Shown: piece by piece, positions 34,757 through 35,897 of the stretch
Position numbering within the stretch: the first letter of the stretch is position 1
How the letters are laid out: each line of letters starts with the position of its first letter
Assembly (NCBI GenBank): GCA_017398425.1
Contig: JAFQFZ010000010.1
Location: 1-35,904, forward strand
Length of the DNA stretch: 35,904 nucleotides
Source of the DNA: Clostridia bacterium
GTDB taxonomy: Bacteria; Bacillota; Clostridia; Oscillospirales; Acutalibacteraceae
Direction: 5' to 3'
Position numbers and translations under genes: made by a program
The notes under the pieces: model-generated
What the model was told of the DNA's origin: nothing
Databases searched by the model: none
The model's input: the letters and a program-made list of their open reading frames with translations, nothing else

Positions 34757-35109
34757 GGGGGCGTAAAGGTTTCGACGGGGATTGTGACACACGGTAAGCG
34801 GGTAGCGGTGCAGGACCGCTATAAAACCTGACACTTTTTAAAATTAAACGACAACAATAAAGTTGCTCTCGCGGCCTAATTAGTGCTGCGCGTTCCGCCC
34901 GAGACTACCGCGACTTGGGATCGGAGCGTCGATTAGCGGTGAACGTGAACGGGTGCTTGTCGCTGCGCTCGTCATGACTTGGCGACTACCGTAAGCAACA
35001 GCCTGTCTGTCGGCGTTTGCTGAGGGGAATCTCAAAAGACAAACTCCACCCGGAGAAAGCTGTGTGAAGTGATTTTCGGACACGGGTTCGACTCCCGTCG
35101 CCTCCACCA
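34757..35109 (+). ncRNA. ssrA: Transfer-messenger RNA (tmRNA)
   Basis: A 353-base tmRNA that rescues stalled ribosomes and tags the unfinished protein. The ends GGGGGCG (34757-34763) and CGCCTCC (35099-35105) pair as a tRNA-like acceptor, followed by ACCA with encoded CCA. GGTTCGACTCC is the T-arm. The tag frame reads AAC GAC AAC AAT AAA GTT GCT CTC GCG GCC TAA (34847-34879), giving NDNNKVALAA with the usual ALAA end. Single-piece form. Perfect promoter upstream and a terminator at 35112. Confidence 0.95.
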
Positions 35110-35111
35110 TG

Positions 35112-35146
35112 AAAAAGGCACTTGCGAAAAGCAAGTGCCTTTTTCA
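35112..35146 (+). terminator. Terminator of ssrA
   Basis: Hairpin AAAGGCACTTGC-GAAAA-GCAAGTGCCTTT with flanking A and T tracts. Confidence 0.9.
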
Positions 35147-35149
35147 GTT

Positions 35150-35316
35150 AAATCCGTCCTTCAGACGGGTGAAATCATCTTCGATGATGAAATCCCCTTC
35201 GGGGATGAAATCCGACCTCGTCGGGTGGAAAGGACGGATTTTATTTCATCTGTGGCATAGCCACAGATTTCATCCAAGCTTTACTTGGATTTCATCGCGC
35301 TCTGCGCGATTTCATT
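35150..35316. repeat. Mirror-symmetric array of small hairpins behind ssrA
   Basis: Seven short hairpins in a row. The first four (CCGTC/GACGG, ATCATC/GATGAT, ATCCCC/GGGGAT, CCGAC/GTCGG) are joined by GATGAAATC-like links. The last three (ATCTGTGGC/GCCACAGAT, ATCCAAG/CTTGGAT, ATCGCGC/GCGCGAT) are joined by GATTTCATC, its reverse complement. AAATCCGTCC (35150-35159) and GGACGGATTT (35232-35241) enclose the first half. A related degenerate copy follows tRNA-Leu. Non-coding. Confidence 0.75.
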
Positions 35317-35343
35317 GAAATATTAGTTGATTTATGATACAAT
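35315..35343 (+). promoter_or_regulatory. Promoter of AT-rich gene
   Basis: TTGAAA (35315-35320), 17-base spacer, TACAAT (35338-35343). The -35 begins at the end of the hairpin array. Confidence 0.72.
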
Positions 35344-35405: not shown

Positions 35406-35897
35406 ATGTTTAACGAGTATGTGTGGAAAATATATTTAAATGCTGATGGAAAAAACATTGTTGATCTGTTCGAGAAAAATCTATCAGGTGATTTAACTCC
35501 AAGTTATGCTAAAAGTATTTCTGCTTTACATAAATCGTATTGTGCAAGTAGTGTGATAGTTGACAATTTATTGAATGAATTAGAAACAACTTATGAAATT
35601 GTAAAAGCGGGTGTTTATGCTTTTGAAGATGGTGAATATACGATTGATAGCGCAATGTCTATTCTCTATGATGAATTAAAATCAGAGGACGGTACAACGG
35701 CGCAATCTATATTTGAAAATTTTTCAGATCTTATAGCATATTACACCACTTTATTTGCAAGAGAACTGCCTGAATTATTTGTACCTTATTACTTCAAATA
35801 TAACTTTAATATTCTTGAAAAAATTGCAAATGAATTTGAAATTGTTCTTCCTGAAATTCCTTTAAAAAAAGATTATGAGGGTCGTGTCGTTTATTAA
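35406..35897 (+). CDS. AT-rich protein of unknown function (possible island gene)
   Basis: A 163-residue protein with no family I recognise. It is mostly helical, with an acidic stretch and a segment ELPELFVPYYFKYNFNILEKIANEF near the end. No signal peptide and no clear membrane helix are seen. Its base composition and codon use (many AAA, TTA and ATT codons) differ sharply from every other gene here, a sign of recent transfer. AAGGAG lies 8 bases before the ATG. Right after its stop, AAGGAGAGC at the window edge looks like a ribosome binding site, so a second gene of the same unit probably follows. It sits just beyond ssrA, a common island insertion site. Confidence 0.75.
   Translation: MFNEYVWKIYLNADGKNIVDLFEKNLSGDLTPSYAKSISALHKSYCASSVIVDNLLNELETTYEIVKAGVYAFEDGEYTIDSAMSILYDELKSEDGTTAQSIFENFSDLIAYYTTLFARELPELFVPYYFKYNFNILEKIANEFEIVLPEIPLKKDYEGRVVY

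What the first reader, a model, noticed from the sequence alone, without database searches (positions are those of the whole stretch)
35150..35316. Mirror-symmetric hairpin array directly behind ssrA
Seven small hairpins with different stems but common links. GATGAAATC separates those of the left half and its reverse complement GATTTCATC those of the right half. Stem sequences differ while stem length and link sequence are kept, which suggests selection on structure rather than simple duplication. It resembles neither a CRISPR (no constant repeat with unique spacers) nor an ordinary terminator. It may be a processed RNA, a protein-binding array, a recombination site of a mobile element, or a non-autonomous repeat family.
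Basis: seen in the sequence. Interest (0 to 1): 0.7.

Follow-up and report, generated by a model that had tools for sequence, protein, structure and literature searches.

The report
Mirror hairpin element behind tRNA genes
The array behind ssrA is one copy of a dispersed, mirror-symmetric repeat that in many relatives sits directly behind tRNA genes and is inherited together with the gene of a small four-helix protein, which suggests a little-known family of selfish DNA.

Summary
In detail: 7 hairpins in 171 bases against at most 4 in 1000 shuffles. The left half matches Rfam Gut-1 above its cut-off; the right half matches it on the other strand, below the cut-off. So two "Gut-1" halves form one palindromic DNA element. 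Of 150 distinct arrays collected, 73 follow a tRNA or tmRNA gene, 15 kinds in all; 48 pairs of arrays 86-98% alike stand behind different kinds. Eighteen arrays adjoin a PF05635 gene (IVP/S23 four-helix protein). In relatives, DNA upstream of IVP genes is far more mirror-symmetric than upstream of control ORFs, with various link words; IVP clade and link word go together (34 of 39 nearest neighbours, 3.9 expected). Of 29 more distant IVP genes, six lie inside 23S rRNA and two inside RNase P RNA genes; many have inverted arms with a 7-nt period. Best reading: an ORF-less copy of an IVP-type selfish element at the 3' end of ssrA. That it moves, and that IVP helps, is inferred. Stems covary; no overall G.T excess favours DNA over one-strand RNA.

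The parts
34757..35109 (+). ssrA (tmRNA), ending in CCA; the gene behind which the element sits
   Evidence: ARAGORN and Rfam RF00023, 163 bits
35110..35146 (+). h0: 16-bp terminator-like hairpin starting right at the CCA end; in other copies some h0 stems recur behind different tRNAs
35150..35161 (+). left end arm AAATCCGTCCTT, reverse complement of the centre
   Evidence: paired in 23 of 23 aligned arrays, with double changes in 5
35152..35226 (+). left half: hairpins h1 35152-35170, h2 35174-35188, h3 35192-35206, h4 35210-35226, links RTGAAAT; Rfam Gut-1 match 35145-35216, 60.7 bits
35230..35241 (+). centre AAGGACGGATTT
35243..35314 (-). right half: hairpins h5 35248-35268, h6 35272-35290, h7 35294-35310, links ATTTCAY; Gut-1-like match 35238-35317 on the - strand, 37.1 bits (below the cut-off of 50)
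35315..35343 (+). promoter-like site formed by the right end: TTGAAA, 17 bp, TACAAT; the same layout in 16 of 139 arrays against 0.17 expected
35406..35897 (+). 163-aa ORF where other copies have the IVP gene; not an IVP protein (only a weak DnaB_2 hit, E 0.036), so this copy lacks the IVP gene

Best explanation
The array is an ORF-less copy of a dispersed selfish element of the IVP (S23, 23S-rRNA intervening-sequence protein) kind. Such elements carry inverted arms made of a repeated short word, usually 7 nt, and the gene of a small four-helix protein; they are often found in or directly behind stable-RNA genes. In the window's relatives the two arms lie next to each other, a hairpin of free sequence stands between successive words (here RTGAAAT and its reverse complement), the element often sits right behind the CCA end of a tRNA or tmRNA gene and a terminator-like hairpin, and the IVP gene, when present, follows the right arm, in some copies under a promoter whose -35 box is the end of the array. 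Shown here: architecture, covariation, near-identical copies behind different tRNAs, and co-inheritance of IVP clade and link word. Inferred: that the unit is copied to new tRNA ends; that the IVP protein binds the words (structured in DNA) and helps in this, in trans for ORF-less copies such as this one; that the position between terminator and promoter keeps insertion harmless to the tRNA gene. The insertion chemistry and its enzyme are unknown.
For: Both halves match Gut-1 in opposite orientation; five mirror copies with the same link in the window's own assembly; Gut-1 in 31 of 60 genomes searched, up to 48 hits per genome, patchy by genus. 73 of 150 distinct arrays have a tRNA or tmRNA gene ending 33-159 nt before the first link, 15 kinds. 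48 pairs of arrays at least 86% identical over at least 150 bp stand behind different kinds of tRNA, e.g. Leu/Ala 89% over 302 bp, Asn/Met 93% over 252, Ser/Gly 94% over 239. 18 arrays have a neighbouring gene of one protein family, all 18 PF05635 above its cut-off; 17 lie to the right on the element's strand, one (L053) on the other side. IVP and Gut-1 co-occur in 23 of 60 genomes, Fisher p 1e-5, not corrected for kinship. 28 of 62 IVP genes have a same-strand tRNA within 450 nt upstream against 3 of 137 control ORFs; mirror coverage median 103.5 against 42, and 31 of 62 lie above the 95th percentile of controls. Link word follows IVP clade, permutation p 0.0005. In 29 distant IVP loci: 6 inside 23S rRNA genes, 2 inside RNase P RNA genes; inverted flanking arms above shuffled in 22 of 28 (mean 21.3 against 10.4); 7-nt period upstream (0.418 at lag 7 against 0.25-0.30 at lags other than 7 and 14). 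IVP relatives in 2 of 2 phage records and 1 of 1 IMG/VR locus have the array upstream too. Covariation: 92.2% of cells paired against 32-40% when slid, 16 pairs with double changes against 2-8.
Against: The window's genome shows no IVP gene (a 79% complete assembly), and 8 of 31 genomes with Gut-1, this one included, show none, so help in trans is unproven there; 5 genomes have IVP without Gut-1. 77 of 150 arrays have no recognised tRNA beside them (8 contig edges, 28 with CCA or T-arm traces, 41 with neither). No target-site duplication and no clean empty site was found: of the three other genomes of the genus, ssrA was found in two, without the array (G002 and G003), but their flanks differ too. 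The 29 distant IVP loci have no tRNA within 450 nt and no excess of mirror arrays upstream (median 28 against 38 for controls), and in 6 of 28 the inverted arms are not above shuffled. For 30 of 69 IVP loci I assigned no link word. I know of no enzymatic activity of IVP proteins. The arms could serve regulation instead of mobility.
Confidence: 0.7

Rival explanations
1. The array is transcribed and works as a structured noncoding RNA, as the Gut-1 entry says (for example a sponge or a processed trailer of tmRNA).
For: Above the Gut-1 gathering score; strong folding on either strand; covariation; Weinberg 2010 lists Gut-1 as certainly RNA (PMC2864571, passages). In the right half alone G.T pairs outnumber A.C on the element strand, 23 to 10.
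Against: It stands after a terminator-like hairpin and before a promoter-like site. In the left half A.C outnumbers G.T, 11 to 3; over both halves 26 G.T and 21 A.C among 1604 pairs, whereas an RNA read from one strand should prefer G.U.
Confidence: 0.1
2. The array is the operator of the IVP gene: the protein binds the repeated words and represses its own promoter, and lone arrays are relics whose gene was lost.
For: In 16 of 139 arrays the right end supplies the -35 box; link word follows IVP clade.
Against: Near-identical arrays behind different tRNAs and arrays in genomes without a detected IVP call for dispersal of the array itself; in distant relatives arms lie on both sides of the gene. 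Compatible with the best explanation as a part of it.
Confidence: 0.2
3. The arrays are leftovers or attachment sites of tyrosine-integrase elements that use tRNA 3' ends as attB.
For: Position right behind CCA; a 22-nt copy of the tmRNA 3' end before the second array in L141; by eye, similar 3'-end pieces before arrays in L201 and a 16-nt tmRNA 3'-end copy in G003.
Against: In L141 the displaced 3' end closes another, inverted-T-arm sequence; 1 of 73 arrays has a direct copy longer than 11 nt within 260 nt, as far as the contigs reach; near-identical arrays sit behind unrelated tRNAs.
Confidence: 0.12
4. A REP/REPIN or IS200-like family moved as single strands by a Y1 transposase.
For: Inverted hairpin pairs resemble REPINs in layout (recalled); Y1_Tnp matches exist in the window's genus.
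Against: Y1_Tnp is in 14 of 31 genomes with Gut-1 and 14 of 29 without, and absent from G006, G007, G039, G047 and G059, which have 21, 12, 33, 27 and 48 Gut-1 hits.
Confidence: 0.04
5. A host transcription insulator (terminator plus promoter cassette) spread by recombination, without a selfish element.
For: A terminator-like h0 on the left in the tRNA-linked copies and a promoter-like right end in 16 of 139.
Against: Does not explain the mirror symmetry, the repeated word or the tie to IVP genes.
Confidence: 0.06

Closest known systems
Rfam RF01706 Gut-1 RNA
   Same: The left half 35145-35216 scores 60.7 bits (cut-off 50): three hairpins joined by UGAAAU-type links.
   Different: Listed as a one-sided RNA of human gut samples only, probably noncoding (PMC2864571, passages). 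Here it is one half of a palindromic DNA element, found in assembled genomes, many from ruminant guts by their titles, tied to tRNA genes and IVP genes.
Intervening sequences (IVS) with S23 protein (PF05635) in 23S rRNA
   Same: Selfish insertion at a stable-RNA gene; IVP protein family; short repeats upstream of the ORF (heptamers GACAGAT in the Coxiella IVS, PMC4990558, passages).
   Different: Placed behind tRNA/tmRNA genes rather than inside rRNA; hairpins between the repeat words; arms adjacent with the ORF to their right; this copy has no IVP ORF.
Avd of diversity-generating retroelements
   Same: PF05635 is said to resemble Avd (PMC10053308, passages). That DGRs use a DNA hairpin or cruciform near the target is recalled, not looked up.
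   Different: Reverse transcriptase does not track the arrays: RVT_1 in 11 of 31 genomes with Gut-1 and 7 of 29 without.
REPIN / BIME and BOX repeats
   Same: Small palindromic dispersed repeats made of inverted modules (recalled).
   Different: Different words and stems, tRNA 3' placement, no link to Y1 transposases.
Heptameric repeat arrays of Xanthomonas and Nostoc (GGGAATC, GGGGAYT)
   Same: 7-nt unit and, in places, inverted arrangement (PMC4692102, passages).
   Different: That text has no occurrence of S23 or four helix; kinship was not tested here.

Membership tests
Rfam RF01706 Gut-1 | covariance-model score at or above the gathering score of 50 bits | tested here: met
   60.7 bits for 35145-35216 +; the right half on the - strand has 37.1 bits, below the cut-off
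Rfam RF01706 Gut-1 | expressed as a noncoding RNA | not testable with these tools
   no expression data; position and pair types speak rather against it
IVS / S23 (IVP) element | carries a PF05635 ORF | tested here: not met
   the downstream ORF has only a weak DnaB_2 hit; 18 other arrays have a neighbouring PF05635 gene. So this copy is called related and ORF-less, not a full IVS
IVS / S23 (IVP) element | inserted in a stable-RNA gene | tested here: inconclusive
   directly behind ssrA, not inside it; 73 of 150 arrays behind tRNA/tmRNA; 8 of 29 distant IVP genes lie inside 23S rRNA or RNase P RNA genes
IVS / S23 (IVP) element | excised from RNA by RNase III | not testable with these tools
   reported for the Coxiella IVS (PMC4990558, passages)
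IVP-linked mirror-array family (this report) | short word repeated in one half, its reverse complement in the other | tested here: met
   RTGAAAT / ATTTCAY
REP/REPIN | dependence on a Y1 (RAYT) transposase | tested here: not met
   no association: Y1_Tnp in 14 of 31 genomes with Gut-1 and 14 of 29 without
MITE | target-site duplication | tested here: inconclusive
   none seen by eye at the ends of copies; no clean empty site found
CRISPR array | constant repeat with unique spacers of similar length | tested here: not met
   the constant word is 7 nt and turns into its reverse complement at the centre
Diversity-generating retroelement | reverse transcriptase | tested here: not met
   RVT_1 in 18 of 60 genomes, 11 of the 31 with Gut-1

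The most novel reading that the evidence does not exclude
There is one broad class of selfish elements, spread over several phyla, made of inverted arms of a clade-specific short word (mostly 7 nt) plus an Avd-like IVP protein that reads that word. They insert in or at the ends of stable-RNA genes (23S rRNA, RNase P RNA, tRNA, tmRNA), and their ORF-less arms explain Gut-1 and perhaps other unexplained heptamer arrays in bacteria.
Probability: 0.45. Interest if true: 0.85.

Novelty: new variant of a known kind. Interest (0 to 1): 0.74.

Why it matters
It turns an orphan Rfam RNA and an orphan protein family (S23/IVP, said to have no known function in PMC4990558, passages) into two parts of one element, and gives both a testable partner: each IVP clade has its own short word. 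If true, it names a large, little-noticed family of selfish DNA that uses tRNA 3' ends as safe havens, and suggests what the S23 protein binds. It also bears on how the related Avd protein of diversity-generating retroelements could recognise nucleic acid.

Tried and rejected
Y1 transposase (RAYT/IS200) as the mover: no association with Gut-1. Reverse transcriptase: 11 of 31 genomes with Gut-1 against 7 of 29 without, no clear association. Reading RNA function from G.U pairs: with the link-derived closing pairs there is a strong strand bias, but it follows from the link words alone; inside stems the two halves lean opposite ways and the sum is even. Empty sites: at ssrA G003 has no array but another element, G002 has no array and unrelated sequence behind ssrA (ARAGORN did not call the tmRNA there), G001 gave no tmRNA match; behind the tRNA-Ser of G000:C33 the search gave no clean pair. 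Direct copies of tRNA 3' ends as duplicated targets: 1 of 73 longer than 11 nt, so not general. Cognate ORF-less arrays: by eye the TCATAAC pattern finds hairpin arrays away from the IVP locus in G013 and G056, two of three genomes with a GTTATGA-type IVP, but also scattered hits elsewhere, so only suggestive; the ATATAAC pattern was not parsed further. IVP relatives in plasmids (25 records): only four places were opened, two looked at for arms. Ten paper searches listed no paper that I recognised as describing these arrays behind tRNA genes; the phrase 'Gut-1 RNA' was in no paper. Subscription papers are not covered.

Rows dropped before counts: 2 of 71 PF05635 rows (G001:C22 and G001:C51, partial) were left out of the 69; 62 of 69 had 300 nt upstream; 39 of 69 have a link word that I assigned by regular expression and by eye; 28 of the 29 distant loci were used, and where an IVP frame holds a stop (among them G077, G174, G242) the stretch taken as downstream begins inside the gene, which lowers the score; 167 array candidates gave 150 distinct ones, found by Gut-1 hits or by one sequence pattern, so they are no random sample; 23 of 92 CCGTCC/CCACCC-type arrays, chosen among the most similar to the window's, were aligned. 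12 of the 150 were turned round by me: 11 because a tRNA lay close on their other side, one (index 102) with a tRNA 374 nt away. All 12 had weak orientation scores of at most 8, while 114 of 150 score 9 or more. The claim of one constant orientation therefore rests on the 61 oriented without tRNA, against 11 that the automatic rule placed the other way.

Full report
What is in the sequence. Behind ssrA (34757-35109) comes a 16-bp terminator-like hairpin (35110-35146) and then the array. Seven hairpins of 6-9 bp follow each other at 35152-35310. The first four are joined by RTGAAAT, the last three by its reverse complement. The left end AAATCCGTCCTT is the exact reverse complement of the centre AAGGACGGATTT. 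1000 shuffles never gave more than 4 hairpins, and the fold z-scores are -6.1 and -7.7 for the two strands. At the right end the last link runs into TTGAAA, and a TACAAT follows after 17 bp.

Known family, half seen. Rfam's Gut-1 (RF01706) matches the left half with 60.7 bits (cut-off 50) and the right half, on the other strand, with 37.1 bits. Gut-1 was described as a noncoding RNA of human gut samples, found only in environmental sequences (PMC2864571, passages). In the window's assembly the RF01706 search gave 18 hits. They fall into five mirror copies with this link, one mirror copy with TGATAT links and five loci with one-sided TGATAT arrays. 31 of 60 genomes searched, the window's own included, have matches, with up to 48 per genome. 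Two viral contigs also matched.

Place. I collected 167 candidate mirror arrays, 150 of them distinct. In 73 of the 150 a tRNA or tmRNA gene ends 33-159 nt before the first link: Leu 13, Ser 11, tmRNA 7, Tyr 6, Arg 6, Gly 5, Trp 5, Gln 4, Ala 4, Thr 4, Asn 2, Val 2, Met 2, Glu 1, Pro 1. The usual layout is tRNA, CCA, terminator-like hairpin, array. Of the others, 8 are at contig edges, 28 show CCA or T-arm traces without a full tRNA, and 41 show neither. 48 pairs of arrays that are 86-98% identical over at least 150 bp stand behind different kinds of tRNA, such as Leu and Ala (89% over 302 bp), Trp and Ser, Gln and Ser, Asn and Met, Ser and Gly. In these examples the likeness starts within the tRNA 3' part, whose T-arm is itself conserved, and stops 5 to about 70 nt after the last link. 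This is how a dispersed element looks, and ssrA is an ordinary address for it. In two other genomes of the genus in which ssrA was found the array is absent: in G003 (95% LexA identity) another element stands there, in G002 unrelated sequence. Neither is a clean empty site.

The protein partner. Clustering the genes near the right ends of the arrays gave one large family: 18 arrays have such a gene within 600 nt, 17 of them on the element's strand, and all 18 proteins are PF05635 (IVP, S23) above its cut-off. One of them matches the solved structure 2rld with E 1.7e-24. Over the 60 genomes Gut-1 and PF05635 co-occur in 23, Gut-1 alone is in 8, PF05635 alone in 5, neither in 24; Fisher p 1e-5, not corrected for kinship. 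Starting from the protein instead, the 300 nt upstream of 62 IVP genes have a median mirror coverage of 103.5 against 42 for 137 control ORFs of the same loci, 31 of 62 lie above the 95th percentile of the controls, and 28 of 62 against 3 of 137 have a tRNA on the same strand within 450 nt. These upstream arrays use different words: TGAAAT, TGATAT, GTTATAT, GTTATGA, TGAATTG, AATGATG and others. Among 39 IVP genes with an assigned word, proteins with the same word are 74.6% identical on average against 48.7% for different words (cross-genome pairs), permutation p 0.0005, and the nearest neighbour in another genome has the same word in 34 of 39 cases against 3.9 expected. So protein and array are inherited as a unit. 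IVP relatives in phage records (2 of 2) and in IMG/VR (1 of 1) have the array upstream too, one behind a tRNA-Arg.

Farther away. 29 IVP loci from the wider phylum have no tRNA within 450 nt upstream (0 of 29) and no excess of mirror arrays (median coverage 28 against 38 for controls). That speaks against a universal array. But six of these genes lie inside 23S rRNA genes and two inside RNase P RNA genes (Rfam), and many have a simpler form of the arms: short repeats before the gene and their reverse complements behind it. Coverage is above shuffled in 22 of 28 loci, mean 21.3 against 10.4. The repeats have a 7-nt period: mean self-match upstream 0.418 at lag 7 and 0.399 at lag 14 against 0.25-0.30 at other lags, downstream 0.388 at lag 7; controls show a weaker 0.309 at lag 7; 20 of 29 loci have their best lag at 7 or 14, against 21 of 69 control ORFs. 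A Treponema and a Monoglobus plasmid locus show such arms by eye and a self-match of 0.68 and 0.44 at lag 7. The Coxiella IVS is reported to have heptamer repeats before its S23 ORF (PMC4990558, passages).

Structure. In 23 arrays close to the window's the hairpin pairs are 92.2% paired against 32-40% when slid; 16 of 42 pairs show changes on both sides against 2-8 slid and 6.2 shuffled. The long-range pair between left end and centre is kept in 23 of 23, with double changes in five. Inside stems of the whole set, 26 G.T and 21 A.C departures stand among 1604 pairs: 3 and 11 in the left half, 23 and 10 in the right. An RNA read from one strand should prefer G.U in both halves, so the structure seems to be kept in DNA or on both strands. 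This is an indication, not proof.

Mechanism. Most likely the IVP protein, a relative of Avd (PMC10053308, passages) and a pentamer in the solved S23 case (PMC4990558, passages), binds the repeated words on the two arms. The arms with their hairpins are the part that is recognised and copied, and the IVP gene is the trans factor on which ORF-less copies such as the window's depend. Placement between terminator and promoter spares the tRNA gene, and in 16 of 139 arrays against 0.17 expected the right end reuses its own sequence as a -35 box. Shown are architecture, dispersal, target preference, covariation and co-inheritance. Binding, copying and the enzyme that inserts are inferred or unknown. 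Y1 transposases and reverse transcriptases do not track the arrays.

Verdict. As an RNA it was half known; as a tRNA-end element tied to IVP genes I recognised no description in ten searches of the open library, which does not cover subscription journals.

Noticed in passing
L003 1501-1640, L007 1501-1640, L008, L012, L013; L072, L074, L075: One-sided sister arrays (TGATAT, or TGAAAT links, about five hairpins, a link GTGAAGGA before the last) directly behind stop codons in several cases and near a terminator; no mirror half.
   Followed up: partly
L109 (ssrA 3' side of G003), L112, L141 2248-2346, L289, L332: A different sequence at tRNA/tmRNA 3' ends: inverted T-arm, a hairpin such as AACAGTCCggtGGACTGTT, then in several cases a direct copy of the last 16-22 nt of the tRNA/tmRNA; looks like another 3'-end element.
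   Followed up: partly
L365, L368; L358, L363, L367, L371, L374, L375: PF05635 genes inside RNase P RNA genes (first two: the RNase P match spans 775 nt around the IVP match) and inside 23S rRNA genes (the others).
   Followed up: partly
L435 (NZ_OY725736.1): An unannotated IVP frame between a restriction subunit S gene and hsdR of a type I restriction locus, with short inverted repeats on both sides.
   Followed up: no
19 arrays, e.g. right flanks of L176, L080, L149: A shared right end GAGAGTTCGAATTCATACGCAAAA..ATCTTTTTTGTAGCCCATAGACA (variants) that resembles a tRNA 3' end; in L176 a second array starts right behind it.
   Followed up: partly
window 35406-35897: 163-aa ORF without a clear family behind the array.
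   Followed up: no
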